Of a DNA stretch of 64,000 nucleotides, positions 12,969-27,265 are shown in pieces (position 1 is the stretch's first letter; every line of letters begins with the position of its first letter). The DNA is taken from NCBI GenBank assembly GCA_030442055.1, contig JAUJEB010000001.1, forward strand, positions 1,178,001 through 1,242,000, read 5' to 3'. The translations under genes and the position numbers were made by a program. Source of the stretch: Agaribacillus aureus (lineage in GTDB: Bacteria; Bacteroidota; Bacteroidia; Cytophagales; Cyclobacteriaceae). Below the pieces are notes generated by a model. That model worked only from the letters and a program-made list of their open reading frames with translations, made no database searches and was not told where the DNA came from.

Positions 12969-13676
12969 CTAATATGTCATGTCGGGAAAACCGACCGGAT
13001 CCGTCCATAATTTGTTAAACTCTTTCTGATAGTTTTTGACTACCGCCACATCCTTCGTTACCATCAAATTCTCATGGTTATTTTCGGCAGCGCTTCTCGT
13101 CCAGTTATAACTACCCGTAAGTACGGAAATACCATCAATAACTGCAAATTTATGGTGCATGTGATGGGAGGTGTCATCGGTTTTTATATGGATACCCGCT
13201 TTTAACATGGCCTTGATATCGGAACCAAGGTCATAAATTTTGTCGTTGTCTGTAATGATCTTGACGGCAATTCCTCTCCTGTGGCTATCAATAATAGCTC
13301 TGGTGATCCTGTCATCGCTAATCGTAAACACACATAGGTTTATCGTTTTTATAGCCTGGTTAAGCGCTGTTAATATAGCCTCCAGACAGGCATTTCCCGG
13401 AGAAAAGTAAACCTGGCTGCTGCCATTTACCGATTTCCTGGGTAATAGAATTTTATTGGCAGTCTCCAGCCAGTCGATAATTTTTGAAATTCCATGCTCA
13501 TGGGCATGGTGCCGGGCAAGCTCAAAAATTTTGTGTCTCAGCAGGTCTAGCGCGCGTTTATCCTGACGGTAGTCTTCTAATTTTTGTTTGAGCGCCCGCT
13601 TTTCCAGCCTTGAAAAATTGCCGTCTTCGATAGTATCCCGAAACGACTGCGCAATCTCTTCCATTGGTTCCGACAT
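12969..13676 (-). CDS. Phospholipase D-like protein with a single HKD motif
   Basis: A 235-residue protein. The first ~80 residues are charged and helical, with many Lys, Arg and Glu (for example ALKQKLEDYRQDKRALDLL). A PLDc_2-type domain follows: VYFSPGNACLEAILTALNQA, then INLCVFTISDDRITRAI, and the catalytic HHKFAVIDGISVLTGSYNWT around residue 173, matching HxKxxxxDxxxxxxGSxN. One HKD per chain implies a homodimer, as in bacterial Nuc-type nucleases and mitochondrial cardiolipin hydrolase; substrate could be nucleic acid or phospholipid. No signal peptide is seen. It begins 24 bp after the XRE/S24-like regulator stop and is likely cotranscribed with it. Confidence 0.85.
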   Translation of the reverse strand: MSEPMEEIAQSFRDTIEDGNFSRLEKRALKQKLEDYRQDKRALDLLRHKIFELARHHAHEHGISKIIDWLETANKILLPRKSVNGSSQVYFSPGNACLEAILTALNQAIKTINLCVFTISDDRITRAIIDSHRRGIAVKIITDNDKIYDLGSDIKAMLKAGIHIKTDDTSHHMHHKFAVIDGISVLTGSYNWTRSAAENNHENLMVTKDVAVVKNYQKEFNKLWTDPVGFPDMTY

Positions 13677-13700: not shown

Positions 13701-14480
13701 TTATTTTAATTTCTTTTTTATCTCTCTGATTTCATCCTCGATTTTCAGAACCCTTGCCTCCACGGCGGAGGGTGGGTTTAAATAGATACTATAAACCCCA
13801 TAAACCTGCCACAACTCCAGAATCTCATCGGTATTCAGGTAAATGGTGGAGTAGTTGGGATCATCAGCGGAAAATTCAATCTGTTCACTAATATCCGTTA
13901 TTCTTCGTGTAATAATATTGTCTTTGGTCACTACCACGAATACCTTTCCTTTCCTGATATTCCTGGCTGTCAGCGTTTCGATTTGATAACCCAGCAAAAT
14001 GTCTCCGTGATGCAAGCCATTGTGATTATATTCCATCTCGCTGCCATTTAGCTGAAACGCCCTTGATTTTTCCTTGCGACTAATGGGCAGATAAATTTTT
14101 TCCAGTCTGGAAATAAAATCCTTATTCTGATAATTTACAATGTACTCCAGGTATTTGTCCACCAAAACCAGCGATATCCCTCCTTCCGGCATTGCATTTG
14201 TCTTTTTTTCGAGATCAGGCCTGGCACCTCCATCCGCATCACCGACAATAATATCAAATTTATAAAGATCATTTACCGTCAATTCTTTATTTAATAGCAA
14301 ATCAATAGAAAGTCCAAAATAATGAGCAATTTGAACAATTGTTTCAATCTTTGGTTCTGCCCTACCCTCTTCATATGCACCAACACTTGGCCTCGCCAGG
14401 TTAAATAATTCCGCAAAACTGGCCTGACTGAGCTTTTTAACCGTTCTTATCTTTTTAATATTTTTTCCAATATATGACAT
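13701..14480 (-). CDS. XRE-family regulator with degenerate S24 (LexA/CI-like) C-terminal domain
   Basis: A 259-residue DNA-binding protein. Residues about 5-62 form an XRE helix-turn-helix (KIRTVKKLSQASFAELFNLARPSVGAYEEG). The C-terminal part, from about 135 to 225, has the S24 beta-fold pattern, with HHGDILLGYQIE matching the conserved PGD turn and KGKVFVVVTKDNIITRRI matching the strand that normally carries the catalytic Lys. At the positions where the Ser of GDSM and the Lys of KR are expected I read GSEM and RR, so self-cleavage is doubtful. A C-terminal coil (KIEDEIREIKKKLK) may aid dimerisation. A palindrome directly before its start suggests autoregulation, and it is divergent from the PspA cluster. 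Confidence 0.85.
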   Translation of the reverse strand: MSYIGKNIKKIRTVKKLSQASFAELFNLARPSVGAYEEGRAEPKIETIVQIAHYFGLSIDLLLNKELTVNDLYKFDIIVGDADGGARPDLEKKTNAMPEGGISLVLVDKYLEYIVNYQNKDFISRLEKIYLPISRKEKSRAFQLNGSEMEYNHNGLHHGDILLGYQIETLTARNIRKGKVFVVVTKDNIITRRITDISEQIEFSADDPNYSTIYLNTDEILELWQVYGVYSIYLNPPSAVEARVLKIEDEIREIKKKLK

Positions 14481-14496: not shown

Positions 14497-14530
14497 GCTA
14501 ATTTTTTGAGCTTATCTAAAACTTTTAGTA

Positions 14531-14777: not shown

Positions 14778-15173
14778 ATGGATAACGATTTTAATAAAGT
14801 AAAAAACTACATCCTTGAACTCAATTATCTAATTACCTACGAAAACGAAAGCGACGGTGTGATTGCCATCGAAAAAGAAACTGAAGGAATCAAAAACCTG
14901 GTACTGGGTATTGCCGAACCCTTATTAATTGTGGAGCAATTTATTCTTGAAATAAATAAAGACAACCAGGATGTTTACAAAAGTCTTTTACAAAAAAACC
15001 GGGATATAATTCACGGTGCCTTTGTACTGGACGAAAGCGGCAAAAAACTCATCTTCAGAAACACCCATGAATTAGAAAATCTCAATTTGAATGAAATTGA
15101 AGGGACCTTAAATTCTTTGGGGCTATTGCTCAGTGAATATTCTGAAGAGTTAATAAAATTTTCCAAAAATTAA
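14778..15173 (+). CDS. YbjN-like (type III chaperone fold) protein
   Basis: A 131-residue acidic cytosolic protein. The order of an N-terminal helix (FNKVKNYILELNY), strands around GVIAIEKETEGIKNLVLGIAEPLLIVEQFI, a helix with VYKSLLQKNRDIIHGAFVLDESGKKLIFRNT and a last helix with LNSLGLLLSEYSEELIKFS fits the YbjN/CesT chaperone-like fold. The LLQKNxxxxHGAFxLD segment is typical of YbjN-like proteins found beside pspA in many bacteria. It is the first gene of the plus-strand cluster, 14 bp before pspA. It may act as an adaptor or chaperone for the neighbouring coiled-coil proteins; that is inferred from context. Confidence 0.7.
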   Translation: MDNDFNKVKNYILELNYLITYENESDGVIAIEKETEGIKNLVLGIAEPLLIVEQFILEINKDNQDVYKSLLQKNRDIIHGAFVLDESGKKLIFRNTHELENLNLNEIEGTLNSLGLLLSEYSEELIKFSKN

Positions 15174-15187
15174 ACGCAAGTTGTATT

Positions 15188-15922
15188 ATGAACATTTTCA
15201 AGAGAATCTTTAAAATCGGACAGGCTGAGGCCCATTCCACGGTTGATAAACTGGAGGATCCCATTAAAATGACCGAGCAGGGAATCAGAGATATGAAGGC
15301 AGACCTGGAGAAGAGCCTGAAAGCTTTGGCAGAGGTAAAATCTCTCGCTATAAGAGCCAGGGATGATGCAGAAAGTAATAAAAACAAAGCAAAAGATTAC
15401 GAAAACAAGGCGATGCTGCTTTTAAAGAGAGCACAGTCTGGCGATATGGAAATGGCGGAAGCCGACCGGTTAGCTACTGAGGCCCTGGTAAAAAAAGAGG
15501 AGTGTTTACAACAAACCAGCCGGGCCAATGCACAGCAAAACAAATTTGAGGAAAATGTCGCCGCGCTCAACGCCAACATCAAGACCATACGCGGCAATAT
15601 CAGCAAGTGGGAGAATGAGTTAAAAACCCTGAAAGCCAGGGTAAAAGTTAGCTCGGCCACCAAAACGTTAAATAAACAATTAGCTCAAATAGATTCCTCC
15701 AGCACCGTATCAATGCTGGAAAAAATGAAGGATAAGGTGGCCAGGGAAGAAGCAATCGCCGAATCTTACGGTGAGATTGCCCAGGAAAGCAGATCCGTAG
15801 ATGAAGAAATTGACAAGGCGCTGGCCGGGGCCGGCCATGACAGGGCCGTGGAAGATCTCGGAGCACTCAAAAAGAAACTGGGAATTATCAAAAAAGACGA
15901 TGAGGAGACAGAGGGGAAATAA
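15188..15922 (+). CDS. pspA: PspA/IM30 family protein (ESCRT-III-like)
   Basis: A 244-residue, almost entirely helical protein starting MNIFKRIFKIGQAEAHSTVDKLEDPIKMTEQ. That is the PspA/Vipp1 opening: an amphipathic helix, then a hairpin with the conserved DP at the elbow. Long heptad helices follow (about 30-185), with EALVKKEECLQQTSRA in helix 2/3 and later SMLEKMKDKVAREEA. PspA and Vipp1 polymerise on stressed or leaky inner membranes and are structural homologues of ESCRT-III (established). The gene follows the YbjN-like gene by 14 bp and precedes YqiJ/flotillin genes, a linkage known for PspA partners. The C-terminus (HDRAVEDLGALKKKLG) may be a regulatory helix. Confidence 0.93.
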   Translation: MNIFKRIFKIGQAEAHSTVDKLEDPIKMTEQGIRDMKADLEKSLKALAEVKSLAIRARDDAESNKNKAKDYENKAMLLLKRAQSGDMEMAEADRLATEALVKKEECLQQTSRANAQQNKFEENVAALNANIKTIRGNISKWENELKTLKARVKVSSATKTLNKQLAQIDSSSTVSMLEKMKDKVAREEAIAESYGEIAQESRSVDEEIDKALAGAGHDRAVEDLGALKKKLGIIKKDDEETEGK

Positions 15923-16083
15923 TCCCCACTGCATTCCTCGGCGACTTAACCTATCATACATTTTATAACAAAGGTATTGGGGCATCGTGGTGGTTAACCA
16001 GGTTAATTTCAACCCACGCGCAAATCCGATGCCCGCCTAAAACTGAATTTTTAAATTTTTGATCGTTAGAATTATTTACGTCC

Positions 16084-16737
16084 ATGACAGAACTTTTTAA
16101 TGCAGCGATTTCATTACCCAATATTATCCCAACAGCCTTGCTGGGCCTGGTACTACTATACTGGATAACAGTTGTGTTGGGAGCACTGGATTTTGATTTT
16201 TTGGATTTTGACATGGATACGGAAATCGAGGGTGAATTAGAGGTGAATGCCGACGCAGGCGGTGAGGGTGATGTTTCCATATCCTGGCTCAATTCAATTC
16301 TCGTATTCTTTAACATTGGCAAAGTCCCCTTTATGCTGTTCTTAAGCACTTTGGCCTTGCCATTGTGGGTAATCTCGGTAATGACCAACCATTACCTGGG
16401 CATCGAATCGTTCCTGGGCGGCTTACTGGTTTTTGTTCCGGTATTTTTTGTGAGCCTTTTCATCGCCAAATTTCTGACCTTTCCGTTTGTTAAGTTATTT
16501 CAACACATGGAAAAAGAAGACGGTGAATCGAATTCAGCTGTCGGCAAGATTTGTGTTGTCTCCACCCTGATCACCGATAAAAAAATCGGTCAGGCACAGG
16601 TAACAACCAGCGGATCACCGATTTTACTGAATGTGGTAACGGGATCGGGCCATCAACTTAAAAGTGGCGACACCGCACTGGTCATCGAATTTTTAAAAGA
16701 GAGAAACCTGTATCTGGTAGAACCCTATAGCGGCTGA
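16084..16737 (+). CDS. YqiJ-like membrane protein with C-terminal OB fold
   Basis: A 217-residue inner-membrane protein with hydrophobic segments at about 12-30, 78-103 and 110-140. An acidic loop (DFDFLDFDMDTEIEGE) sits between the first two. A C-terminal soluble domain of about 70 residues, from VGKICVVSTLITDKKIGQAQ to DTALVIEFLKERNLYLVEPY, is an OB-like beta-barrel as in NfeD/YqiJ proteins. Such proteins pair with SPFH/flotillin proteins and are commonly encoded next to them, as here (53 bp before the flotillin). The role is presumed to be membrane anchoring or assembly of the flotillin scaffold. Confidence 0.85.
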   Translation: MTELFNAAISLPNIIPTALLGLVLLYWITVVLGALDFDFLDFDMDTEIEGELEVNADAGGEGDVSISWLNSILVFFNIGKVPFMLFLSTLALPLWVISVMTNHYLGIESFLGGLLVFVPVFFVSLFIAKFLTFPFVKLFQHMEKEDGESNSAVGKICVVSTLITDKKIGQAQVTTSGSPILLNVVTGSGHQLKSGDTALVIEFLKERNLYLVEPYSG

Positions 16738-16790
16738 TAAACGTCGGCCATGAATTATCAATTTTAATCAACAACTTATCATCAAATCAT

Positions 16791-18923
16791 ATGGAAACAT
16801 CAATGCTTTGGACAATAGTCATATTAACAGCATTCTTTTTAATAGCAATTTTGATACTCATTGCCAGAATGTACCGCAAGGCGGTGCAAGGCGAAGCTCT
16901 GGTCAGAACCGGGGCCGGAGGCACTAAAATATCATTTAATGGTATATTATCTTTTCCGGTAATTCACAAACTTGAAATTATGGATATCACCCTGAAAACC
17001 ATGGTGGTCTCCAGAACGGGAAAAGACGGCTTAATTTGTAAAGACAACATGCGAGCCGATATTCAAATCACCTTTTTTGTAAGGGTTAACAAAACCGAGG
17101 AAGACGTAAAACACGTGGCACAATCAATTGGTTGTCATCGCGCTTCCGATACCAAACAATTGGAGTTACTCTTCGATGCCAAGTTTTCCGAGGCACTGAA
17201 GACGGTAGGCAAGCAATTTGATTTTGTAGAGCTTTATAACTCCAGGGCTGATTTCAGGGATAAAATTATTGAGGAAATAGGTACGAATCTTAACGGTTAC
17301 ATACTGGATGATTGTGCTATCGACTACCTGGAACAAACCCCGCTTGATTCCCTTAATGAAAGTAATATCCTGGATGCTGAGGGTATCAAAAAAATCATTG
17401 ACATTACTTCAAGGGAGAAAATCAAAGCCAACTTAATTGAAAAAGAGAAAGAGAAAACGATTACAAAACAAAATGTGGAAGCCCGCGAGACAATACTGGA
17501 GCTGGAAAAACAGCTGGCGGAAACTGAGGAAAAACAACGCAAGGAAATTGCTATCACAAAAGCCCGGGAGGAAGCGGAGACGAAGACTATGCAGGAGCAG
17601 GAAAGGCTGAAGTCGGAAAAAGCCCGCATTGTCACGGATGAAGAGCTACAGGTAGCTGAGGAAAACAAAATGCGTGAAATCATTGTGGCCTTGAAAAACA
17701 AGGAGAAAACAGAAGCCATAGAAAGTGAGCGAGTGGAACAAGCGCGGTCTCTTGAAGCTACGGAAAGAGAAAGAATCGTGACCCTCGCGCAGATAGAAAA
17801 GGAAAAGGCCGTGGAAGAGGAGCGCAAAAACATCCAGGACGTTATCCGTGAAAGGGTAGCCGTGGAAAAAGCTGTGGTGGAGGAAGAGGAGAAAATTAAA
17901 GACACAAAGGCATATGCTGAGGCTGACAGGTTGAAAAAGGTAGCCATCACCAACGCCGAAAAAGACGCTGAGGAAGCACTGGTGAAGGAAATCAAAAGTG
18001 CCGAAGCCAAGAAACACGCAGCGGAGCACCTCGCCAAGCAAAAACTGATCGATGCCGATGCCGAGCAGGCATCTGCCGGACAAAGGGCTGACGCCATTAA
18101 AACACTGGCAGAAGCCAAGGCCGCTGAAGCTGCTGCACTGGGCATGTCCGAAGCCCAGGTAATGGAAGCCAAAGCCGATGCACGTATCAAACAGGGTGAG
18201 GCAGAAGCCAGCGTTATCGAGGATCAGGCCATAGCTGAAGCCAAAGGCATTCAGGCCAAATCGGAAGCTCAGGCGTTGGGGAATCAAAAAATAGGTTTGG
18301 CAGAGGCAACTGTCATTGAAGCCCGGGCCCAGGCCGAAGAAAAGAAAGGCCTAGCCGAAGCAACGGTCATGTCAGAGAAGTTCTCCGTAGACGCCAAAGG
18401 CATCGAGCAAAAAGCCAATGCGATGAAGAAACTGGATGGTGTTGGCAAGGAGCATGAGGAATTCAAGTTGAAATTAGGAAAGGAAAAGGAAATAGAACTG
18501 GCTTCTATCCATATCCAAAAAGACATCGCCGAAGCCCAGGCCAGGGTCATTGCGGAAGCCTTGAAGGCTGCCAACATAGATATCGTAGGCGGAGAAACCA
18601 TGTTCTTTGACCAGATCATCAATGCAGTTACCAGGGGTAAGTCAATTGACAGAATGGTCGACAACAGTCACGTGATCGGCAGTGTTAAAGATACATTCTT
18701 TAATTCCGACACCGGAGGGAATTTCAAAACCAGACTCTCACAATTTATAGATCAGTTTGGTATAAACCCTGAAGATGTCAAAAACTTAAGCCTGTCGGCG
18801 CTGTTGCTGAAAATGATGCATAAAGCCAAGGACCAGGATACCAAGGGCATTATCAGTCAATTGTCCAGCGTTTCCGAAGCGCTCGGGATCGCGGATAAAT
18901 CTGCTGAAAGCATCGGCCTGTAG
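16791..18923 (+). CDS. Flotillin (YqiK-like SPFH protein)
   Basis: A 710-residue protein. A membrane helix at about 7-25 is followed by an SPFH domain (about 35-200) with YRKAVQGEALVRTGAGGTKIS and DNMRADIQITFFVRVNK, the usual flotillin landmarks. A very long Ala/Glu/Lys-rich coiled coil follows (about 205-560) with many EA repeats (AEAKAAEAAALGMSEAQV, AEATVIEARAQAEEK), then a C-terminal domain (IDIVGGETMFFDQIINAV and a helical end). E. coli YqiK is ~550 residues, so this coil is longer. Flotillins form ordered membrane scaffolds. The gene sits directly behind its YqiJ-like partner, in the middle of the PspA cluster. Confidence 0.93.
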   Translation: METSMLWTIVILTAFFLIAILILIARMYRKAVQGEALVRTGAGGTKISFNGILSFPVIHKLEIMDITLKTMVVSRTGKDGLICKDNMRADIQITFFVRVNKTEEDVKHVAQSIGCHRASDTKQLELLFDAKFSEALKTVGKQFDFVELYNSRADFRDKIIEEIGTNLNGYILDDCAIDYLEQTPLDSLNESNILDAEGIKKIIDITSREKIKANLIEKEKEKTITKQNVEARETILELEKQLAETEEKQRKEIAITKAREEAETKTMQEQERLKSEKARIVTDEELQVAEENKMREIIVALKNKEKTEAIESERVEQARSLEATERERIVTLAQIEKEKAVEEERKNIQDVIRERVAVEKAVVEEEEKIKDTKAYAEADRLKKVAITNAEKDAEEALVKEIKSAEAKKHAAEHLAKQKLIDADAEQASAGQRADAIKTLAEAKAAEAAALGMSEAQVMEAKADARIKQGEAEASVIEDQAIAEAKGIQAKSEAQALGNQKIGLAEATVIEARAQAEEKKGLAEATVMSEKFSVDAKGIEQKANAMKKLDGVGKEHEEFKLKLGKEKEIELASIHIQKDIAEAQARVIAEALKAANIDIVGGETMFFDQIINAVTRGKSIDRMVDNSHVIGSVKDTFFNSDTGGNFKTRLSQFIDQFGINPEDVKNLSLSALLLKMMHKAKDQDTKGIISQLSSVSEALGIADKSAESIGL

Positions 18924-18944
18924 CAAGCCGCTTAATTGGACAAA

Positions 18945-18968
18945 GCCGGGGTTTAGTCAAATCCCGGC
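18945..18968 (+). terminator. Hairpin after the flotillin gene
   Basis: GCCGGGGTTT (18945-18954) pairs with AAATCCCGGC (18959-18968) with one G-T pair and a 4-nt loop. No T-run follows, so it may be an attenuator or mRNA-stability stem rather than a full terminator inside this co-oriented cluster. Confidence 0.4.
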
Positions 18969-19059
18969 AATCCCAAAAACCTAATAGTATAAATAGAAAG
19001 ACAATCTTGCTGGATCTGTAAGGGGGAGGTAGCTAATATCATTCTTAAACCTCTGTGAA

Positions 19060-19278
19060 ATGAATAGTTCAAACGAAAAACTTGCTTGTAAAATTAGTGG
19101 TATGATCATCAGCTTTTTCATTGCTGGTATGATGATCATCCTGCTAACCAATGCAGATCACCAAAGAATATCTACCTGGATCGCTTTTTTCATAGCCATG
19201 CTGGGTTTGGTAGCCCTCAATATCATTTACCTGAATTTGATAGAAAATGTATTTAGAAAGCTTAACCACAAGAATTAA
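19060..19278 (+). CDS. Small two-helix membrane protein
   Basis: A 72-residue protein of unrecognised family. The sequence has a short polar start, a first hydrophobic helix (about 11-28, ISGMIISFFIAGMMIILL), a short polar turn (NADHQRIST) and a second helix (about 36-58), then a basic end (VFRKLNHKN). The gene is co-oriented with, and lies between, the flotillin (137 bp upstream) and the ABC exporter genes. It is probably a subunit or regulator of the neighbouring membrane complex, from context only. Confidence 0.6.
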   Translation: MNSSNEKLACKISGMIISFFIAGMMIILLTNADHQRISTWIAFFIAMLGLVALNIIYLNLIENVFRKLNHKN

Positions 19279-19290
19279 CATAAAACCGAC

Positions 19291-19339
19291 ATGTTTACTA
19301 TAATTATTCAACATAAATAGAAATAATTATAGTAAACAT
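19291..19339. repeat. Perfect 18-bp inverted repeat between two small membrane-protein genes
   Basis: ATGTTTACTATAATTATT (19291-19308) is perfectly complementary to AATAATTATAGTAAACAT (19322-19339) across a 13-nt loop. It fills the gap between the two small genes. There is no T-tail, so it may be a regulatory stem, RNA-processing site or operator. Confidence 0.6.
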
Positions 19340-19358
19340 CAAAGGTTCCATGTGACCA

Positions 19359-19652
19359 ATGAAAACAAATTATAAACACATGAAACACTGGCCGAGAGAG
19401 CCGATAAAGGATAGTCTGAAAACACGAAAACAATTAACTAACAAGTCTGAAAAGAATTTTGAAGAGGAGTTACACAGATTCGAGATTACAGGGTTGAAAA
19501 AGAAAATCAAAAAGTTAAAACAACGCAATCTCGAAAAATTTAAAGAAAGAGCAGCCTATAAGAAGCAGGTTTTACAAAAACAAATTACGTTGGTATTACT
19601 GATTTTTACACTGATCTGGTTCTTTATGCTGATTATGATTGGGTTTAATTAA
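19359..19652 (+). CDS. Small basic coiled-coil protein with C-terminal membrane anchor
   Basis: A 97-residue protein of unknown family. Residues 1-70 are strongly basic and helical (GLKKKIKKLKQRNLEKFKERAAYKK). The last ~22 residues form one hydrophobic helix (ITLVLLIFTLIWFFMLIMIGF), giving a tail-anchored topology with the basic coil in the cytoplasm. An internal Met at residue 8 is an alternative start. It is positioned 54 bp before the DUF5687 permease. Its layout (basic N-terminal part plus C-terminal anchor) parallels the small gene at 27008, suggesting related roles in the same cluster. Confidence 0.6.
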   Translation: MKTNYKHMKHWPREPIKDSLKTRKQLTNKSEKNFEEELHRFEITGLKKKIKKLKQRNLEKFKERAAYKKQVLQKQITLVLLIFTLIWFFMLIMIGFN

Positions 19653-19706
19653 GCGATCTCAAACAAGTAGACTTTAACGCAATAACTTAAAAAGACACCA
19701 AACACT

Positions 19707-21185
19707 ATGATAAAACATTTAATAAGTCATCAGTTGAAGCAATCTTCCAGATCCAAAAGATTTGCCGAAGGTACAGGGATTAAAATTGTGTATTGGTTTT
19801 TTATTGGCCTTATGCTTTTATATGTCCTGGCGGCCGGATTTTTTATCGATAAAATTCTGGAGGCATCATTCCCCGGCCAGGACCTTATGACCGTTTTCAA
19901 TAGTTTCATTTTATATTATTTCACAGCAGATATATTTATGCGGTTTTACCTCCAGGATGTGCCTATTTTATCGATCAGTCCCTACCTGCATTTACCCATA
20001 AAAAAGCATAAAATGATTCACTTTATGCTCTCAAAGTCGCTGTTAAGTCTTTTTAATTATCTACCACTCTTCATATTTATCCCATTTGGCCTGAAGGTCA
20101 TCCTGCCGGCGATGGGCGCCGGTTATGCCATCATCTGGCTGTTGGGGATTTATGGCTTAATATTGACCAATAACTTCCTGGCTATTTATTTAAAAAGACA
20201 ATTGGTAGGAAACTTTAAGGTGGTCATCAGCTTTATTGCTTTTATTATTACCTCTGCCATTGTTGATTTCATGGGCTGGGTAGACTTTTCAGAACTGTCA
20301 TCCATGCTTTTCTCGAGCCTGGGACAAAATTACGGCTATCTGCTGGTCATTGGAGGGCTGTTACTATCGGCATACCTGCTAAATTATCTTTTATTAAAGA
20401 AAAATACCTACCTGGACGAAATTGACTATGGAAAAAAGAAAGACGGGTTCAAGGCCATTAACACCTCATTTTTAAAGCGTTACGGCAATATAGGATCCCT
20501 GATCGCTATGGAGTTAAAGCTGATTTTCAGGAATAAAAGGCCCAAATCGATATTTTTCATGAGCGTCATGCTTTTGTTGTATGGTTTTTTATTTTATCCC
20601 AACGACTTCTATATGGAGGGGTTTGCTATGCTCACCTTTGTAGGAGTCTTTATGACCGGCATATTCCTGAGCAATTACGGCCAGCTTTTGCTGAGCTGGA
20701 ATAGCAATTTCTTTGACAAGATCATCACCAGCCGCGTCAATATGCAGGAGTATTTTGAGTCGAAATTCTGGCTGTTTTTTGTTACTTCTACTGCTGCTTT
20801 TATCCTTACGGTTCCATATTTATATTTTGGCTGGAAGGTGTTGGCTATCAACGCAGCCAGTTACTTATTTAACGTTGGCGTCAATGCCTTTGTAATATTT
20901 TATTTCAGCATGCGAAACCCCAAGCGAATAGATCTGTCAAAAAGCGCTTCCTTCAACTACGAGGGAGTTACTGCCACACAGTTCATCTTAATCTTGCCTA
21001 TACTGCTACTCCCGGTTTTGCTGGTAGCGCCCTTCCAATATTTTGGAATGCCATACCTGGGAATTTCCTTACTGGCGGTTATGGGCATAGTTGGGCTATT
21101 TTTGAAAAATACCTGGTTTAAGCTGATTGAAAAAAGATATCGGACCAAAAAACACGAGCTTGCCACCGGTTTCCGGCAGGTATAA
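19707..21185 (+). CDS. ABC transporter permease, DUF5687-like
   Basis: A 492-residue inner-membrane protein with about 12 hydrophobic helices. The start MIKHLISHQLKQSSRSKRF and the following long helix resemble DUF5687 proteins, a Bacteroidota family that pairs with an ABC-2 type ATPase. A soluble segment (about 235-265, YLDEIDYGKKKDGF) precedes LIAMELKLIFRNKRPKS, the motif that typically opens the second half. It is followed 37 bp later by the ABC ATPase start, so together they form an ABC exporter. The substrate is unknown. Confidence 0.8.
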   Translation: MIKHLISHQLKQSSRSKRFAEGTGIKIVYWFFIGLMLLYVLAAGFFIDKILEASFPGQDLMTVFNSFILYYFTADIFMRFYLQDVPILSISPYLHLPIKKHKMIHFMLSKSLLSLFNYLPLFIFIPFGLKVILPAMGAGYAIIWLLGIYGLILTNNFLAIYLKRQLVGNFKVVISFIAFIITSAIVDFMGWVDFSELSSMLFSSLGQNYGYLLVIGGLLLSAYLLNYLLLKKNTYLDEIDYGKKKDGFKAINTSFLKRYGNIGSLIAMELKLIFRNKRPKSIFFMSVMLLLYGFLFYPNDFYMEGFAMLTFVGVFMTGIFLSNYGQLLLSWNSNFFDKIITSRVNMQEYFESKFWLFFVTSTAAFILTVPYLYFGWKVLAINAASYLFNVGVNAFVIFYFSMRNPKRIDLSKSASFNYEGVTATQFILILPILLLPVLLVAPFQYFGMPYLGISLLAVMGIVGLFLKNTWFKLIEKRYRTKKHELATGFRQV

Positions 21186-21222
21186 GTGTAAATTCTTCAT
21201 CAACCTATTAATAATAAATACT

Positions 21223-21924
21223 ATGAATTTTATAGAAATCAATAATCTCAAAAAAGCATATAAACTAACAGAGGTTGTCAATATTCCTCATCTGGCTATT
21301 CCGGTCGGGGAAAGTTTTGGACTCGTGGGGAACAATGGGGCCGGTAAAACCACCCTGTTTAGGATGATCCTCGACCTTACCAGACCCAACTACGGTGAGG
21401 TCACCAGTAAAGGCATAGATGTCAGGCAAAGTGAAGAATGGAAAAGCTATACGGGCTCTTACCTGGACGAAGGCTTTGTCATCGATTTTTTGACACCTGA
21501 TGAATACTTCCATTTTATCGGCGACATTAATCACCTCTCGAAAGGCGATATCAACGAATTTCTGGACGCTTTTGCTGAAGTTTTTAACAATGAAATCATT
21601 GGAAAAAAGAAATACATCCGCGATTTATCCAAAGGCAACCAGAAAAAAGTGGGCATTGCGGCGGCATTGATGGTCAACCCTGAAATAATCCTGCTGGATG
21701 AACCCTTCGCCAACCTGGATCCAAGTACGCAGATACGACTCAAAAAATACCTGATAGAGATCAAGCAACAAAAACAGGTCACGTTACTCATTTCCAGTCA
21801 CGATCTCAATCATGTGACAGAGGTTTGTGAGAGAATTGTAGTATTGGAAAAAGGAGAAATTATTCATGACATAAGAACCAGTCAAAATACCCTAAGGGCG
21901 TTGGAAGAACATTTCGCCGTGTAG
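21223..21924 (+). CDS. ABC transporter ATP-binding protein
   Basis: A 233-residue nucleotide-binding subunit. The ATG at 21223 is chosen because MNFIEINNLKKAYKL is the normal start of this family; the same frame is open to 21127, but that extension overlaps the permease gene and has no domain. Motifs are Walker A GNNGAGKTTL, a signature LSKGNQKKVGIAAALM, Walker B EIILLDEPFANLDP and the H-loop ISSHDLNH. SKGNQ is the variant signature common in ABC-2 exporters. It pairs with the DUF5687-like permease directly upstream and precedes the giant AAA+ gene by 59 bp. Confidence 0.95.
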   Translation: MNFIEINNLKKAYKLTEVVNIPHLAIPVGESFGLVGNNGAGKTTLFRMILDLTRPNYGEVTSKGIDVRQSEEWKSYTGSYLDEGFVIDFLTPDEYFHFIGDINHLSKGDINEFLDAFAEVFNNEIIGKKKYIRDLSKGNQKKVGIAAALMVNPEIILLDEPFANLDPSTQIRLKKYLIEIKQQKQVTLLISSHDLNHVTEVCERIVVLEKGEIIHDIRTSQNTLRALEEHFAV

Positions 21925-21983
21925 GGGCAAAGTCTCCGGATTATTTTTTAAAAACATTTTAATATTAAGCAGAATAATCATTA

Positions 21984-24900
21984 ATGACAGAAAAAAAAGC
22001 AAATAACAAAGAGAAAAATCCAAATCCGGCTACCGAATTGGAGGCGGGAACCTATGAAATTTTAAGCAAAAGGTTGCAAAACAATAGCCTTCAGCTCAGG
22101 GAAAAGCTCAGCGGACTCAATGAATCCAGAAAGGAAGTATTTGGATCAATTGATACAGCGCTGATCACTACCGAAAGAATCAACACAGAGCACAACTGTA
22201 TCCCCTGGGATATGGAACCGATAGGTAATCACTTTATCTTTGGCTACAACGTTCATATTGGATTGAAAGTGGAAATGCAACTCGCCGATGTGTTCAGCAT
22301 TTATACTTTCAGGGATCACGGCTTTCACACTGAAGGACTTGAAATGATCGCTGATAATACCTTCATTGAAGATTTCAGAAAGTTATATAAATATTATAAA
22401 AACACCCGGTTTGTGAAGTTCGCACGGATTGAAAATCACCTTTTCATGATTTTCCGTGTTGGCAAGGGCCGGGATGATATCAAGACATTTAAATGGTTAA
22501 TTAACGGTTTGGAGCTGGTCTATGTGGACAACAGAAGTGATCACGAATATGTTTTTCCCAACCAGCACGAATTTAACTGGGAAAAAACCAACAGAGACTT
22601 CCACCGGGAGGGCGAATTTCCTCATATCTCTATTGAGGACAAAGTTTTTGTAGAAACGATTGGTGGTGACCTTACCATTAAAATCGAGGATAACACCGAC
22701 GAGGGGAAAGGAATTTACTCGGAAAAGGTAGAAAATATAGATCAGCGACTGGAAGATGCGGAGATCTATTATACCATTTTAGGAAATATTATTATCCTTA
22801 AAATCAGACCTTACCAGGAAAAAAACTTCCGCTATATTGTTTACAATGCAAAATTAAAGGAAGCCAGGAGAATTGATGCATTAAAAGATGCCTGCGTATT
22901 GTTGCCGGATGATTATGGCATTATTTTTTCCAACGGCTATTACTTAAAAACAGGAGAGTTTAAGCAATTCGACAACCAGTTGGATAACATGTATTTCGAA
23001 AGAAGAATTGCCTCGCCCAACGGCGAAGATTTTCTTTATGTCTTTTACAACAAAGACTCCGGGATTTATCTTTTATTGCCTTACAATATCATCGAGCAAA
23101 AAGTCAATACGCCGCTGACCTGTCACGGCTATTCCATCTTTGAAAACGGGGAACTTATTATTTTAAATGCAGACGATGCCGCCAAAAAGCACCATACCAT
23201 ACAAATATGGCAGACGCCCTATACCGGACCAAATTTCCAGGTACAGGCATCCAATAACTCTTATTTATATAAAATCGGTAACAAAGAGATCGTTAAAGCC
23301 ATGGCCGAATGCCATGAAGTCATTAGCCTTATCGAGAAGGGCGATGACTATGAAAACCTGTATGCAGATTTAATAGGAATCACGGGCGATTTAAAAGACA
23401 GTTATCATTGGATCGCCAGGGAAGAGGCCCACAACCTGGCTTCATCGTTATCGGCCATTCACGAGACTGCATCATCTGCGATCTCTGAATTTGAAAAAGT
23501 AAGCGCAATCAGAAAAAATACCAGGGAACAGGTAGCCTTGGTATCAAAGGAAACCAAAGGCCTGATCAATAGAATAAAACGCCAAAAGGCAGACACTGTC
23601 AATGCCTATGTGTTGAACCTGCAAGACCTGCGAAACATCCGCGGGAAATTAATTTCTTTAAAAGAACTGCGGTACGCCGATCTTGAGGCCGTAGAGGGGT
23701 TCGAAAAAGAGGTGGAGACGGCCACCGCGAATACCTCGAGAGAATGCATTAAATTCCTGTTAAAAAAAGATGCACTGGCACCTTATGCGCAAAACGTCAC
23801 CAGAATTGAGAACGCCGTAAAACAGTTAAAAAAAATTGTGGAAGCTAACCAATTGGCACAGGAGATTGCCGACGTATCTGCGGAATTGGAATTGCTGATA
23901 GAAATCGTCACCAACCTGAAAATTGAAGATGCAACCGAAACTACCAGAATTGTAGATAACATTTCGACCATCTATTCAGGTTTTAATAAAATAAAAGCCG
24001 ATCTTAAAAATAAGAGAATATTGCTGCTGGGTGTCGAGGGTAAGGCCGAGTTTAATGCGCAAATGAAGTTGGTGGACCAGGGTCTGATCAACTACCTGGA
24101 CATCTGTGACAAACCCGAAAAATGCGATGAATACCTCACCAGGTTAATGGTTCAGCTGGAGGAGCTGGAAGGCAAATTTTCTGAATTCGATGAATTTATA
24201 GATAAAATAAGCCTCAAAAGGGAAGAAGTTTATAACGGGTTTGAAACCCGCAAAATTGCCCTGATCGAGGCGCAAACCAAACGAGCGAATACGTTGATGC
24301 AGGCCGCCGACAGAATTTTAGGGGCGGTCAAAAGCCGCGTGTCCAGGTTTGAGTCAATTGATGAGATCAATGGTTATTATGCCGGAGACCTGATGATAGA
24401 AAAAGTACGCGATATAATTACTTCACTGGTAAGTTTGGGGGACACGGTGAAATCCGATGAGATCCAAAGCCGGTTGAAAGCAGTGCGCGAAGAGGCCGTG
24501 AGGCAACTCAAAGACAAAAAAGAGCTATTTCTTTCCGGGGAAAATATCATTCAATTTGGCAACCATAAGTTTTCGGTCAATACACAACCCCTGAGTCTTA
24601 CCATTGTACCAAAGGGGGATAACATGTATTTTCATCTGACCGGCACCAACTTTTTCGAAAAAATCGACGATGCCGGCTTTAATGATTGCAAAGCCGTCTG
24701 GGATCAGGCCTATGTCTCCGAAAACCCGCAGGTTTACAAGGGCGAATACCTGGCTTACAAAATCATAAAATCAAAGCCTTCAGGTTCGGACACCGCGCAA
24801 AATATACCCATTCTTACACCCGAGAAGTTAATAAAGCTGGATCAAAAAAAATTGAGGAATTACGTACAGCAATTTATGGCCACAAGATATCATGAAGCCT

Positions 24901-26915
24901 ATATAAAAGGCGTTCACGACCACGATGCGATTATGATATTAAATGTTCTACTCAAGTTCCTGAAGTCGGGAGATTTATTGAGATATTCTTCAGAAGCCAG
25001 GGCCTGTGCCACACTGTACTGGAAAGTTTTTATTTCGGAAGAAAGCAAAAACCACCTCAATCATCAGCTAAAAGGTGTCGGCACCATCCTAAAGGTATTC
25101 CCTGAAACCAGGGAATTTGATGATATCAAACTGATCTTACAAAGAGAAATTGAAGCCTTTGTGGACGAAGCCGGTCTCTTTGACCGTACCATTTGCTATC
25201 AGGCAGCTGAATATTTGTTCCACGAGGTCAACCGGGGCGACAAGTTTGTTATCGACGTGGAATCGGCCAGACTCTATGAGCGGTTTTTTCAATACCTCGG
25301 CAAAAAAAAGGCAAAAAAAGAGTTCGACCGATCTACCGCACAAATTGCCACTGACCCATTGGCAAAATATAGATTAATTCAGCACTGGCTGCGGGCCTTT
25401 GTCCGGTCAGACGATGAAATGGTCGGCGACGAATACATCAACGAAACCGCTACCATTATTTTAACAGACTCCTTTAAACCTAACCACGTCATTCATGTTG
25501 CCTTAAAAGAGACGTTGCAAGGGTTGTTGGGTACACATACCATTATTAAAGACAAGAGGTATGAGCTGGATTATAATGCCTTTACCCTGAAACTGGATAA
25601 TTTCGAAAAGCAGGTGGTTCCCAAATACCATAAATTTCTACAATTAAAGAAACAGATATCTACCGATTACAGTGAATCACTCAGGCTGGAGGAATTCAGA
25701 CCAAGAATTTTGTCATCATTCGTAAGAAATCAACTAATAGACCGGGTATACCTTCCGCTGATAGGCGCCAATCTGGCAAAACAGATTGGAACCGTCGGAG
25801 AAAATAAGAGAACCGACCTGATGGGCATGTTACTGCTAATTTCCCCGCCCGGCTACGGTAAAACCACCCTCATGGAATACATAGCTAATCGCCTGGGGCT
25901 TATATTTATGAAAATCAACGGACCTGCTATCGGCCATCAGGTTACCGCTGTTGATCCGGCCGAAGCAACAAATGCCGGTGCCAGGGAGGAGCTGGAAAAA
26001 TTAAACCTCGCATTCGAGATGGGTGACAACGTGATGATTTACCTCGATGACATTCAGCATTGTAATCCGGAGTTTTTGCAAAAATTCATCTCACTCTGCG
26101 ATGGTCAAAGGAAAATTGAGGGAATATATAAAGGCAAAAGTAAAACCTATGATTTCAAAGGGAAAAAAGTTTGCGTGGTAATGGCCGGCAATCCTTATAC
26201 CGAAAGTGGGGAGAAGTTTAGCATTCCCGATATGCTGGCTAACCGGGCCGATATTTATAATTTGGGAGATATTATAGGTGATAATGCCGGTGTATTTAAA
26301 CTGAGCTACCTGGAAAACTGCCTGACTTCTAATCCGGTCATGAATAAGTTAGCGGGAAAAAGCCAGCAGGACCTGTATACCATGATTAAAATTGCCGAAA
26401 CTGGCAACAGGGAAGGGCTTGATTTTGACTACGCTTATTCCGCCACCGAAATAGAGGAATATGTCAACGTTTTAAAAAAACTGTTGAAAGTACGCGATAT
26501 CATATTAAAGGTCAACATGGCCTACATATACTCCGCTGCTCAGGCCGATGAATATCGAACGGAGCCACCTTTTAAACTTCAGGGGTCTTACAGGGATATG
26601 AATAAGATTGCCGAAAAGGTGGTGCCGGTGATGAATGAAAAGGAACTGGCAACCCTGATCGATACCCATTACGAAAATGAGGTACAAACCCTGACAACCG
26701 GTGCCGAGGCAAATTTATTGAAATACAAGGAGCTTCAAAAGGCGCTGAACACACAGGATCAACAAAGGTGGGATGAGATCAAAAAAACCTTTGTACGCAA
26801 ACAGCAACTAAGCGTACTTGGAGGACAAAACCAGGTAGGACAGGTACTTTTGCAGATGGAGCATATTAACGACGGATTGAAAGGCATCATCAGTGCCTTG
26901 ATAAAAGATAAATAA
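21984..26915 (+). CDS. Giant coiled-coil AAA+ ATPase (annotated in other species as DNA repair ATPase, DUF3686-like)
   Basis: A 1,643-residue cytosolic protein. The first ~430 residues are beta-rich. A helical and coiled-coil middle follows (about 480-870), then a mixed region and a C-terminal AAA+ module. Walker A is PPGYGKTTL at about 1288, Walker B VMIYLDDIQH at about 1350, sensor-1 VMAGNP at about 1400, and LANRADIYNLGDI supplies a likely arginine finger near 1418. Length and layout match the large ATPases usually named DNA repair ATPase, a name with weak experimental basis as far as I know. Its position behind PspA, flotillin and an ABC exporter argues for membrane remodelling or assembly of these polymers rather than repair (inference). 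Confidence 0.8.
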   Translation: MTEKKANNKEKNPNPATELEAGTYEILSKRLQNNSLQLREKLSGLNESRKEVFGSIDTALITTERINTEHNCIPWDMEPIGNHFIFGYNVHIGLKVEMQLADVFSIYTFRDHGFHTEGLEMIADNTFIEDFRKLYKYYKNTRFVKFARIENHLFMIFRVGKGRDDIKTFKWLINGLELVYVDNRSDHEYVFPNQHEFNWEKTNRDFHREGEFPHISIEDKVFVETIGGDLTIKIEDNTDEGKGIYSEKVENIDQRLEDAEIYYTILGNIIILKIRPYQEKNFRYIVYNAKLKEARRIDALKDACVLLPDDYGIIFSNGYYLKTGEFKQFDNQLDNMYFERRIASPNGEDFLYVFYNKDSGIYLLLPYNIIEQKVNTPLTCHGYSIFENGELIILNADDAAKKHHTIQIWQTPYTGPNFQVQASNNSYLYKIGNKEIVKAMAECHEVISLIEKGDDYENLYADLIGITGDLKDSYHWIAREEAHNLASSLSAIHETASSAISEFEKVSAIRKNTREQVALVSKETKGLINRIKRQKADTVNAYVLNLQDLRNIRGKLISLKELRYADLEAVEGFEKEVETATANTSRECIKFLLKKDALAPYAQNVTRIENAVKQLKKIVEANQLAQEIADVSAELELLIEIVTNLKIEDATETTRIVDNISTIYSGFNKIKADLKNKRILLLGVEGKAEFNAQMKLVDQGLINYLDICDKPEKCDEYLTRLMVQLEELEGKFSEFDEFIDKISLKREEVYNGFETRKIALIEAQTKRANTLMQAADRILGAVKSRVSRFESIDEINGYYAGDLMIEKVRDIITSLVSLGDTVKSDEIQSRLKAVREEAVRQLKDKKELFLSGENIIQFGNHKFSVNTQPLSLTIVPKGDNMYFHLTGTNFFEKIDDAGFNDCKAVWDQAYVSENPQVYKGEYLAYKIIKSKPSGSDTAQNIPILTPEKLIKLDQKKLRNYVQQFMATRYHEAYIKGVHDHDAIMILNVLLKFLKSGDLLRYSSEARACATLYWKVFISEESKNHLNHQLKGVGTILKVFPETREFDDIKLILQREIEAFVDEAGLFDRTICYQAAEYLFHEVNRGDKFVIDVESARLYERFFQYLGKKKAKKEFDRSTAQIATDPLAKYRLIQHWLRAFVRSDDEMVGDEYINETATIILTDSFKPNHVIHVALKETLQGLLGTHTIIKDKRYELDYNAFTLKLDNFEKQVVPKYHKFLQLKKQISTDYSESLRLEEFRPRILSSFVRNQLIDRVYLPLIGANLAKQIGTVGENKRTDLMGMLLLISPPGYGKTTLMEYIANRLGLIFMKINGPAIGHQVTAVDPAEATNAGAREELEKLNLAFEMGDNVMIYLDDIQHCNPEFLQKFISLCDGQRKIEGIYKGKSKTYDFKGKKVCVVMAGNPYTESGEKFSIPDMLANRADIYNLGDIIGDNAGVFKLSYLENCLTSNPVMNKLAGKSQQDLYTMIKIAETGNREGLDFDYAYSATEIEEYVNVLKKLLKVRDIILKVNMAYIYSAAQADEYRTEPPFKLQGSYRDMNKIAEKVVPVMNEKELATLIDTHYENEVQTLTTGAEANLLKYKELQKALNTQDQQRWDEIKKTFVRKQQLSVLGGQNQVGQVLLQMEHINDGLKGIISALIKDK

Positions 26916-26956
26916 AATAGTTTTTCCTTTTGGCTAGCTTTTAATAAAGGAAATTT

Positions 26957-26972
26957 AGCTATGGCCATAGCT
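26957..26972. promoter_or_regulatory. 16-bp perfect palindrome between the AAA+ gene and the last cluster gene
   Basis: AGCTATGGCCATAGCT is perfectly self-complementary and lies 36 bp before the small gene at 27008. With no loop it is more likely a protein site than an RNA hairpin, but no binding factor can be named. Confidence 0.35.
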
Positions 26973-27007
26973 CTGTATCGTTTTTTTCACTTTAAACCAC
27001 TAAAATT

Positions 27008-27265
27008 ATGGGATACATGGGCTTTGGAATGCGCAAGGAAGTTTATACAAGAAAACCTAAACCCGCATTCAAAAAAATAAAAAAAATCTATGGCAAGCAC
27101 CTGGATTTGCCAAAATCATCATTGCAGTTAACCCCTGCTAAAACAGGGGCATACCGGCAAAAAAAATCAGTTCACCTGGTAGATACCGCCGCTTTTAAGA
27201 TATTTATCTTTTTGATTTTAGTTGGAGGTGTATTACTCATTATGCACTTCTTAGGATCAATATAA
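27008..27265 (+). CDS. Small basic tail-anchored protein
   Basis: An 85-residue protein of unrecognised family. Residues 1-58 are basic and rich in Lys/Arg (KPKPAFKKIKKIYGKH, then SSLQLTPAKTGAYRQKK). One hydrophobic helix (about 65-82, FKIFIFLILVGGVLLIM) ends the protein. It is the last gene of the plus-strand PspA cluster, 92 bp after the AAA+ gene, and faces the giant T9SS gene across a bidirectional terminator. It could tether the AAA+ ATPase or another soluble member to the membrane; this is inference from charge, topology and place. Confidence 0.6.
   Translation: MGYMGFGMRKEVYTRKPKPAFKKIKKIYGKHLDLPKSSLQLTPAKTGAYRQKKSVHLVDTAAFKIFIFLILVGGVLLIMHFLGSI

What the first reader, a model, noticed from the sequence alone, without database searches (positions are those of the whole stretch)
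14778..27265. PspA-YqiJ-flotillin-ABC-giant AAA+ cluster as a candidate membrane-remodelling system
Ten plus-strand genes in a row join a YbjN-like protein, PspA, a YqiJ-like protein, a YqiK-like flotillin, two small membrane proteins, a DUF5687 ABC exporter, a 1,643-residue AAA+ ATPase and a tail-anchored protein. PspA is an ESCRT-III homologue and eukaryotic ESCRT-III is recycled by the AAA+ ATPase Vps4 (established). A linked AAA+ machine plus a flotillin scaffold suggests a bacterial analogue (inference). PspA with YbjN/YqiJ/YqiK linkages are known; the addition of the exporter and giant ATPase is what seems little described.
Basis: partly seen in the sequence, partly recalled or inferred. 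Interest (0 to 1): 0.85.

Follow-up and report, generated by a model that had tools for sequence, protein, structure and literature searches.

The report
PspA-flotillin-giant AAA+ ATPase membrane operon

Summary
The ten plus-strand genes are real. The core (CesT/Tir-like, PspA, YqiJ-like, Band-7 flotillin, propeller-AAA+ ATPase) is an operon type published by Ravi et al. 2024 (PMC11237479, section 19), who also proposed ESCRT-like roles; this is a new member. Comparative tests refine it. (1) In 80 loci the ATPase sits with flotillin in 76 and YqiJ in 75, but with PspA in 41; 10 of 38 ATPase genomes without linked PspA show none anywhere. (2) Of the 41 PspA loci, 40 have CesT and a divergent XRE/S24-like regulator; so do 13 of 16 dyads from ATPase-free genomes: two modules joined. 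(3) The regulator-operon gap carries CTAA-N5-TTAG in 20 of 37 regions (shuffles: mean 0.3, maximum 2), but only 2 of 20 stand-alone dyad loci. (4) The exporter is linked in 2 of 80 loci and co-occurs with the ATPase no more than chance (25 against 24.6). (5) The AAA+ domain is not Vps4-type. Most likely an inducible membrane-repair scaffold whose ATPase works with flotillin/YqiJ and, where present, PspA. No biochemistry was done.

The parts
12969..13676 (-). PLD-like (HKD) protein, 235 aa; accessory gene behind the regulator
   Evidence: PLDc_2 1.1e-30; PLD relative in 7 of 80 loci, the window included, beside the divergent regulator in 6 of the 7
13701..14480 (-). Divergent XRE-type HTH regulator with S24-like C-terminal domain, apparently without the catalytic Ser/Lys pair
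   Evidence: HTH_3 7.8e-11, Peptidase_S24 1.6e-6; in the columns taken by eye as catalytic the window has E and R, and 0 of 14 rows have the pair; divergent in 40 of 40 loci that have it
14516..14528 (.). Predicted operator CTAAAACTTTTAG, 35 bp from the regulator start and 249 bp from the CesT start
   Evidence: CTAA-N5-TTAG in 20 of 37 regulator-CesT regions, shuffles mean 0.3, max 2; distances. The window's 16-base version has one exact match in the 9.39 Mb genome, itself, and one more with 1 mismatch, against 12 for the reversed control pattern
14778..15173 (+). CesT/Tir (YbjN)-like small protein, candidate PspA chaperone/adaptor
   Evidence: CesT_Tir_1 2.1e-53, YbjN 5.6e-5
15188..15922 (+). 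PspA (bacterial ESCRT-III family), the only PF04012 match in the genome
   Evidence: PspA_IM30 4.1e-41; single in genome; family profile matches Vipp1/PspA structures 1.9e-24
16084..16737 (+). YqiJ/YuaF (NfeD-like) membrane protein, three TM-like stretches
   Evidence: TM scan; YqiJ_N in 6 of 12 family members, best 0.001, not in the window protein; YuaF 2k14 E 0.061; present in 75 of 80 loci
16791..18923 (+). Flotillin-like Band-7/SPFH protein with N-terminal TM
   Evidence: Band_7 1.6e-10 on the N-terminal 220 aa; TM-like 1-30; 76 of 80 loci
19060..19278 (+). Small two-TM protein (72 aa), lineage-specific
   Evidence: TM scan; 3 of 80 loci: window, L050, L054
19359..19652 (+). Small tail-anchored-like protein (97 aa), lineage-specific
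   Evidence: TM-like 71-97; 3 of 80 loci
19707..21185 (+). DUF5687 permease, lineage-specific insertion
   Evidence: PF18940 3.7e-153; linked in 2 of 80 loci; neighbours of the ATPase in 2 of 53 ATPase genomes of the family, by coordinates
21223..21924 (+). ABC ATPase partner of DUF5687 (233 aa from the likely ATG)
   Evidence: ABC_tran 4.1e-23 (scanned from 21217); start; DUF5687-ABC pairs away from the ATPase in L013-L018
21984..26915 (+). Giant ATPase, 1,643 aa: beta-propeller, long helices, helical region, AAA+ module
   Evidence: DUF3686 38-475, DUF7902 596-678, AAA 1283-1403; AlphaFold2 models pLDDT 85.2 and 85.5; Walker A/B, N1403, R1421, R1537 invariant in 81 of 81 rows
27008..27265 (+). 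Tail-anchored-like 85-aa protein, sporadic
   Evidence: TM-like 54-85; relatives in 3 of 80 loci: window, L047, L054

Best explanation
This is an inducible membrane-repair operon built from two modules. Module A is a divergent XRE/S24-like regulator with CesT-PspA; module B is YqiJ-flotillin-giant AAA+. Proposed working (inferred): the regulator represses itself and the operon from dyad operators and lets go on an envelope signal. YqiJ and flotillin then build a membrane scaffold. The CesT-like protein keeps or delivers PspA, which polymerises on damaged membrane at that scaffold. The AAA+ ring is tethered by its propeller and long helices and uses ATP to remodel the assembly; its constant client is the flotillin/YqiJ scaffold, and PspA is an added client or recruited partner where present. 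The exporter, the two small membrane proteins and the tail-anchored protein are lineage-specific passengers or accessories. Shown: genes, conservation, module structure, intact ATPase motifs, dyad enrichment. Inferred: regulation, interactions, client, membrane role.
For: Linkage counts in 80 loci: flotillin 76, YqiJ 75, PspA 41, CesT 40, XRE 40; 34 loci have YqiJ-flotillin-AAA+ without linked PspA. On the ATPase tree the PspA label changes 7 times, at least 5 forced by starred branches, shuffled mean 27: the PspA module was gained or lost repeatedly beside a steadier module B. CesT-PspA comes with the divergent regulator in 13 of 16 dyads of ATPase-free genomes (16 picked of 44 such PspA genomes). 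In the host family 53 of 53 ATPase genomes have PspA and CesT. Dyad: 28 sites in 8,147 bp against 39 in 864,337 bp elsewhere in the same loci; spacing 5 stands out (20 loci; next, 4 at spacing 2); symmetric variants CTCAAA-N-TTTGAG in L066, L081 and stand-alone L145. ATPase motifs invariant in 81 of 81 rows. No detectable PspA in 10 of 38 ATPase genomes, nor with an operon-specific profile at E up to 1, which did find the control genome. Precedent: the SPFH protein YdjI is required to bring PspA to the membrane in B. subtilis (PMC8581546, abstract).
Against: In the host family the ATPase was never found without PspA (53 of 53), which favours PspA as an essential partner there. PspA can be coded elsewhere: 28 of the 38 genomes have some match (23 over the cut-off), and absence in draft or metagenome assemblies is weak evidence. 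The exact dyad is missing in 17 of 37 linked regions and present in only 2 of 20 stand-alone loci (with one mismatch 7 of 14 regions against a shuffle mean of 1.9). Of 4 dyads lying away from the ATPase in ATPase genomes, 3 lack the regulator. The 80 loci are largely the best-scoring relatives of the window's ATPase, not an even sample. No interaction, expression or phenotype data.
Confidence: 0.5

Rival explanations
1. One reading: the giant ATPase is the bacterial functional counterpart of Vps4, and its main job is to extract or recycle PspA polymers; flotillin only positions it.
For: PspA is an ESCRT-III family member (PMC8281802, passages). In the host family ATPase implies PspA in 53 of 53 genomes. 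Ravi et al. propose ESCRT-like analogues for PspA-AAA+ operons. Liu et al. 2021 call it unclear whether PspF acts like Vps4 on PspA or whether Vipp1 has an equivalent ATPase (PMC8281802, passages).
Against: 34 of 80 loci have YqiJ-flotillin-ATPase without linked PspA; 10 of 38 ATPase genomes have no detectable PspA, among them two Pontibacter isolates. No MIT domain, no classical SRH; modelled pre-sensor-1 hairpin.
Confidence: 0.25
2. The exporter is a working part: the DUF5687-ABC transporter moves lipid or another envelope component as the output of the remodelling system in this lineage.
For: The pair sits inside the operon with 31-59 nt gaps, between the small TM genes and the ATPase in two genera, with DUF5687 58.5% and ABC 76.8% identical against 66.3% for the ATPase, so it has been kept there since their split or a shared transfer.
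Against: Absent from the window's congener, which keeps both small membrane genes and the rest. Linked in 2 of 80 loci. In 295 family genomes 25 have both families against 24.6 expected, P 0.51. DUF5687-ABC pairs also occur away from the ATPase.
Confidence: 0.1
3. The ATPase works like FtsH in an SPFH cage (HflKC-FtsH, recalled): an AAA+ quality-control machine enclosed or gated by flotillin.
For: Constant pairing of an SPFH protein with an AAA+ protein (76 of 80); QmcA (SPFH) is the one PDB match at E up to 0.1 to the flotillin profile, 0.0035.
Against: No TM stretch and no HEXXH motif in the window ATPase; HEXXH in 3 of 81 rows. So it is not an FtsH-type protease. A non-proteolytic version is not excluded.
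Confidence: 0.12
4. A DNA-repair ATPase, as the Pfam description of DUF3686 says.
For: The Pfam text 'ATPase involved in DNA repair' and RuvB among the fold matches.
Against: The constant partners are membrane proteins; RuvB similarity is that of the AAA+ module in general (TMt 0.32-0.37 for near-full RuvB chains).
Confidence: 0.03

Closest known systems
CesT/Tir-PspA operon group 1 of Ravi et al. 2024 (PMC11237479, example ANH61662/ANH61663)
   Same: CesT/Tir-PspA dyad, TM + Band-7 flotillin, YqiJ/YuaF protein, AAA+ fused to N-terminal beta-propeller and coiled coil; abbreviated versions without the dyad also described there
   Different: Here with a DUF5687-ABC exporter, two small TM genes and a tail-anchored gene. 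The divergent XRE/S24-like regulator is not named in section 19 or the passages seen; their supplements were not readable
ESCRT-III / Vps4
   Same: A polymerising PspA (ESCRT-III family) next to an AAA+ ATPase
   Different: ATPase without MIT domain or classical SRH, with propeller, long helices and a modelled pre-sensor-1 hairpin; in 39 of 80 loci without linked PspA
Bacillus subtilis YdjI/YdjGH-PspA network
   Same: An SPFH protein is required to bring PspA to the membrane, with membrane partners (PMC8581546, abstract)
   Different: No giant AAA+ ATPase is named in the part read (abstract and outline only)
HflKC-FtsH
   Same: SPFH protein paired with an AAA+ machine (recalled)
   Different: ATPase here without TM stretch and without the FtsH protease motif
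MoxR-type ATPases CbbQ and NorQ
   Same: AAA+ module; TMt up to 0.53 (CbbQ) and 0.54 (NorQ), the highest in the 50 rows shown apart from one truncated RuvB chain of 146 aa
   Different: Their chains there are 235-267 aa; a VWA partner was not looked for here

Membership tests
Ravi et al. CesT/Tir-PspA + Band-7 + AAA+ + YqiJ operon | CesT/Tir-PspA dyad | tested here: met
   CesT_Tir_1 2.1e-53 and PspA_IM30 4.1e-41, 14 nt apart
Ravi et al. CesT/Tir-PspA + Band-7 + AAA+ + YqiJ operon | TM + Band-7 + coiled coil + C-terminal flotillin domain in one protein | tested here: inconclusive
   TM-like 1-30 and Band_7 1.6e-10 met; no Pfam flotillin hit on the C-terminal 174 aa; coiled coil not measured
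Ravi et al. [quoted passage not shown]
   Strands 59-410 followed by long helices in the model, propeller proteins among the fold matches, with low TM-scores; AAA 1283-1403
Ravi et al. CesT/Tir-PspA + Band-7 + AAA+ + YqiJ operon | YqiJ/YuaF-type three-TM protein | tested here: inconclusive
   Three TM-like stretches fit; sequence support is weak: YqiJ_N in 6 of 12 family members, best 0.001, none for the window protein; YuaF 2k14 E 0.061
Ravi et al. CesT/Tir-PspA + Band-7 + AAA+ + YqiJ operon | Sequence identity to the published examples ANH61662/ANH61663 | not tested
   Those records were not fetched
Vps4 | N-terminal MIT domain | tested here: not met
   No MIT match at E up to 0.1 in Pfam; N-terminus modelled as a helix and propeller
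Vps4 | Classical AAA module with SRH and without pre-sensor-1 hairpin (definition recalled) | tested here: not met
   Strands 1377-1382 and 1385-1390 before the sensor-1 strand in the model; AGNP and a later RxD instead of an SRH, these residues invariant in 81 of 81 rows; no Vps4 named in the 50 fold matches shown of 368 or the 60 PDB sequence matches shown of 96
Vps4 | Acts on ESCRT-III-family polymers | not testable with these tools
   Needs protein biochemistry; genetic linkage only
ESCRT-III superfamily (PspA branch) | PspA/Vipp1 sequence family | tested here: met
   PF04012 4.1e-41; Vipp1/PspA chains 1.9e-24
HflKC-FtsH | Membrane-anchored AAA+ with HEXXH zinc-protease motif (recalled) | tested here: not met
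   No TM stretch, no HEXXH in the window protein
SPFH/flotillin | Band-7/SPFH domain | tested here: met
   Band_7 1.6e-10 on the N-terminal 220 aa
MoxR AAA+ family | Pre-sensor-1 beta-hairpin (definition recalled; shared with RuvB, MCM and others) | tested here: met
   DSSP of the model; CbbQ/NorQ TMt up to 0.53-0.54
MoxR AAA+ family | VWA-domain partner (recalled) | not tested
   No search for a VWA protein was made
S24/LexA self-cleaving repressors | Catalytic Ser/Lys pair in the C-terminal domain (motif recalled) | tested here: not met
   In the columns taken by eye as catalytic the window has E and R; Ser in 2 of 14 rows (L045, L056), Lys in 0 of 14 (in the next column in 4), so the pair in none. 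Four short or divergent rows align poorly there

The most novel reading that the evidence does not exclude
The YqiJ-flotillin-DUF3686 ATPase is a widespread bacterial membrane-scaffold motor that has repeatedly captured a self-regulated PspA cassette (XRE / CesT-PspA with a 13-bp dyad operator) and, in Bacteroidota, works as the missing ATP-driven remodeller of bacterial ESCRT-III at flotillin platforms, with a non-Vps4 (pre-sensor-1-hairpin) AAA+ motor: a second, independently built ESCRT-III plus AAA+ pairing.
Probability: 0.25. Interest if true: 0.85.

Novelty: new member of a known kind. Interest (0 to 1): 0.42.

Why it matters
Whether any ATPase remodels bacterial PspA/Vipp1 as Vps4 does for ESCRT-III is stated as unclear in PMC8281802 (passages), and PMC11746142 suggests chaperones or PspF (passages). 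This operon gives a concrete, conserved candidate and, through lineages with no detectable PspA such as Pontibacter, a natural control that separates 'ATPase acts on PspA' from 'ATPase acts on flotillin'. The regulator and its predicted operator offer a handle for finding the inducing stress. The exporter can be left out of the general model.

Tried and rejected
Exporter as a core part: rejected on linkage (2 of 80) and co-occurrence (25 against 24.6 expected); many of the 25 have the two genes on different contigs of draft genomes, so a link across a contig end is not excluded there. Anti-phage defence: PADLOC, eight of the ten proteins scanned, gives only weak coiled-coil or generic ATPase matches. 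DNA repair: rests on a Pfam description and general AAA+ similarity. Solved relatives of the propeller half: two weak matches to a coiled-coil protein by sequence; fold matches include many propellers, all with low TM-scores. The VIA-align library was not available. Published work: in the held open library no paper holds DUF3686, DUF5687, DUF3686 with PspA, 'DNA repair ATPase' with flotillin, or SPFH, NfeD, PspA and ATPase together; subscription papers and supplements were not searched. SPFH papers seen in passages only (PMC2636767, PMC13086221, PMC1468410) name no giant ATPase there ('ATPase' 0 occurrences in each). A perfect 6-1-6 dyad as a general rule for the operator: 13 of 37 linked regions (shuffles mean 2.8, max 8), some of them other words, and 2 of 14 stand-alone regions (shuffles mean 0.98, max 4), so not general. 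Genome-wide uniqueness of the operator says little: the exact match is the window's own site, and the reversed control pattern has 12 one-mismatch matches.
Full report
OBSERVATION. The ten plus-strand ORFs of the finding are there, 14778-27265, with gaps of 14-161 nt. Pfam identifies CesT_Tir_1, PspA_IM30, DUF5687, ABC_tran, and DUF3686 + DUF7902 + AAA on the 1,643-aa protein. The flotillin has no hit at full length, but its first 220 aa match Band_7 at 1.6e-10, and those of three relatives at 5.6e-13 to 2e-11; the full-length miss is probably a composition-filter effect (inference). The genome (9.39 Mb, 36 contigs) has one DUF3686 and one PspA match.

WHAT WAS MISSED. Upstream, on the minus strand, lies an XRE-type regulator with an S24-like domain (13701-14480) and behind it a PLD-like gene (12969-13676). 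In the two columns that I took by eye as the S24 catalytic pair (motif recalled), Ser stands in 2 of 14 rows and Lys in none, so self-cleavage is unlikely.

KNOWN OR NEW. Ravi et al. 2024 (PMC11237479; sections 18 and 19 read; [quoted passage not shown] and shorter versions without the dyad. They also propose ESCRT-like roles. Popp et al. 2022 (PMC9239133, passages) report Band-7 genes beside pspA in several phyla, Bacteroidota among them, and HTH genes beside pspA in others such as Acidobacteriota. I did not find the divergent regulator of this group in section 19 or in the passages shown ('XRE' 0 and 'S24' 0 occurrences; 'transcription factor' 12, of 20 places 12 shown); supplements were not readable, so it may be listed there.

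NEIGHBOURHOODS. I took 24 loci from unnamed relatives and 80 named loci from the genome collection, the best 80 of at least 579, and scored all with profiles built from the unnamed loci and the window. With L060 dropped as a duplicate of L054 and only loci with at least 7 kb upstream kept, 80 loci remain, the window included: flotillin 76 (75 on the ATPase's strand), YqiJ 75, PspA 41, CesT 40, XRE 40 (all 40 divergent), PLD 7, small-TM genes 3 each, tail-anchored gene 3, DUF5687 2. All 40 loci with XRE and CesT have PspA; one locus (L069) has PspA without them; 34 have YqiJ and flotillin but none of the three; 1 has flotillin only; 4 have none of these partners in reach. The PspA-less loci span Planctomycetota, Verrucomicrobiota, Kiritimatiellota, Thermodesulfobacteriota, Calditrichota and Bacteroidota; all PspA-linked loci whose organism is shown are Bacteroidota (tree labels). 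On the ATPase tree (quick method, 80 rows) the PspA label needs 7 changes, at least 5 forced by starred branches, against a shuffled mean of 27.

GENOME-LEVEL TESTS. In 295 genomes of the host family: ATPase 53, PspA 97 and CesT 96 over the cut-off, DUF5687 137. All 53 ATPase genomes have PspA and CesT (hypergeometric 6.6e-32, no correction for kinship); PspA lies within 15 kb of the ATPase in 46 of 53; PspA and CesT lie within 2 kb in 94 of 97. ATPase and DUF5687 coincide in 25 genomes, 24.6 expected, P 0.51; by coordinates they are neighbours only in the window and G410. Outside the family the picture differs. I gave 38 genomes with an ATPase and no linked PspA in view: 35 of the 38 genomes behind the 39 PspA-less loci (three on short metagenome contigs left out), plus three with less upstream sequence. 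28 have a PspA match somewhere (23 over the cut-off) and 10 none; an operon-specific PspA profile finds none in those 10 at E up to 1 but does find the control genome. Two of the ten are Pontibacter isolates (L061, L100; titles); the completeness of eight of the ten is not told.

THE PspA CASSETTE. I fetched 20 CesT-PspA dyads away from the ATPase: 16 picked from the 44 PspA genomes without the ATPase, and 4 in ATPase genomes. The divergent regulator is present in 13 of 16 and 1 of 4. So XRE / CesT-PspA looks like a cassette of its own.

THE OPERATOR. Of 40 regulator-CesT gaps, 37 have at least 40 bp. CTAA-N5-TTAG, found by looking for shared dyads, occurs in 20 of 37 (28 sites in 8,147 bp; 39 in the other 864,337 bp of the same loci; 1 in 60,477 bp of other intergenic sequence); 200 dinucleotide shuffles give mean 0.3, maximum 2; other spacings give 0-4 loci. 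With one mismatch 32 of 37 against a shuffle mean of 7.2. In 17 of the 20 loci a site lies 26-48 bp from the regulator start; three loci (L116, L119, L121) have a second site 32 bp further and four Aquimarina loci one 93 bp further. Hymenobacter loci L066 and L081 have CTCAAA-N-TTTGAG instead, a symmetric change. Against this: the exact form is in only 2 of the 20 stand-alone dyad loci, with one mismatch in 7 of 14 regions against 1.9 in shuffles. Related loci are not independent.

THE ATPase. Walker A SPPGYGKTT, the Walker B acidic pair, sensor-1 N1403, R1421 and R1537 are invariant in 81 of 81 rows (roles assigned from recalled AAA+ anatomy). AlphaFold2 with alignments of the family: residues 1-880, pLDDT 85.2, a strand-rich propeller-like part (59-410) and long helices; residues 862-1643, pLDDT 85.5, with a beta-hairpin before the sensor-1 strand. 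Fold matches of the second model are RuvB, ClpA, MCM, Cdc48 and the MoxR-type CbbQ and NorQ; no Vps4 is named in the 50 rows shown. Whole-model TM-scores are low, since only the AAA+ module is matched. By sequence the best PDB matches are p97/Cdc48 over about 37 residues around Walker A, 1.9e-5, which does not settle the clade. It fails the Vps4 features tested; whether it works like Vps4 remains open.

THE EXPORTER. DUF5687 of the window and of G410 are 58.5% identical, against 32-37% to DUF5687 proteins lying elsewhere, so the operon copy is an old local variant; the congener G395 lacks DUF5687 altogether but keeps both small-TM genes. It was inserted or lost within this lineage.

VERDICT. 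Real, well conserved, mostly published. New from this work, as far as the papers seen go: the two-module structure, the regulator tie, the predicted operator, the exclusion of the exporter, and the argument that flotillin/YqiJ is the ATPase's constant partner. The Vps4-like action on PspA is still a live and testable idea.

Noticed in passing
window 27359-40717 (-): A 4,452-aa ORF with a Por secretion tail (2.8e-7) directly downstream, convergent with the operon; looks like a giant secreted repeat protein.
   Followed up: no
window 12969-13676 (-): PLD-like gene behind the regulator recurs in the same divergent place in L050, L062, L063, L084 and L136, extending to Bacteroidota what PMC11237479 notes for Proteobacteria.
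   Followed up: partly
window 12466-12945 and 10752-11357 (-): SnoaL-like and 2'-5' RNA ligase-like genes also near the regulator; SnoaL also beside PLD in L050.
   Followed up: no
L058 (G404:C1:743000-762900): A second, divergent giant ATPase copy with none of the profiled partners nearby; longest branch of the tree.
   Followed up: no
L117: YqiJ-flotillin and the ATPase are on opposite strands, the only such case of 76 flotillin-bearing loci.
   Followed up: no
window 16791-18923 (+): Full-length Pfam scan of this flotillin misses Band_7, which its N-terminal third alone shows clearly: an annotation pitfall.
   Followed up: yes
L158-L160: CesT-PspA copies elsewhere in ATPase genomes without the divergent regulator: possibly differently controlled paralogues.
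   Followed up: no
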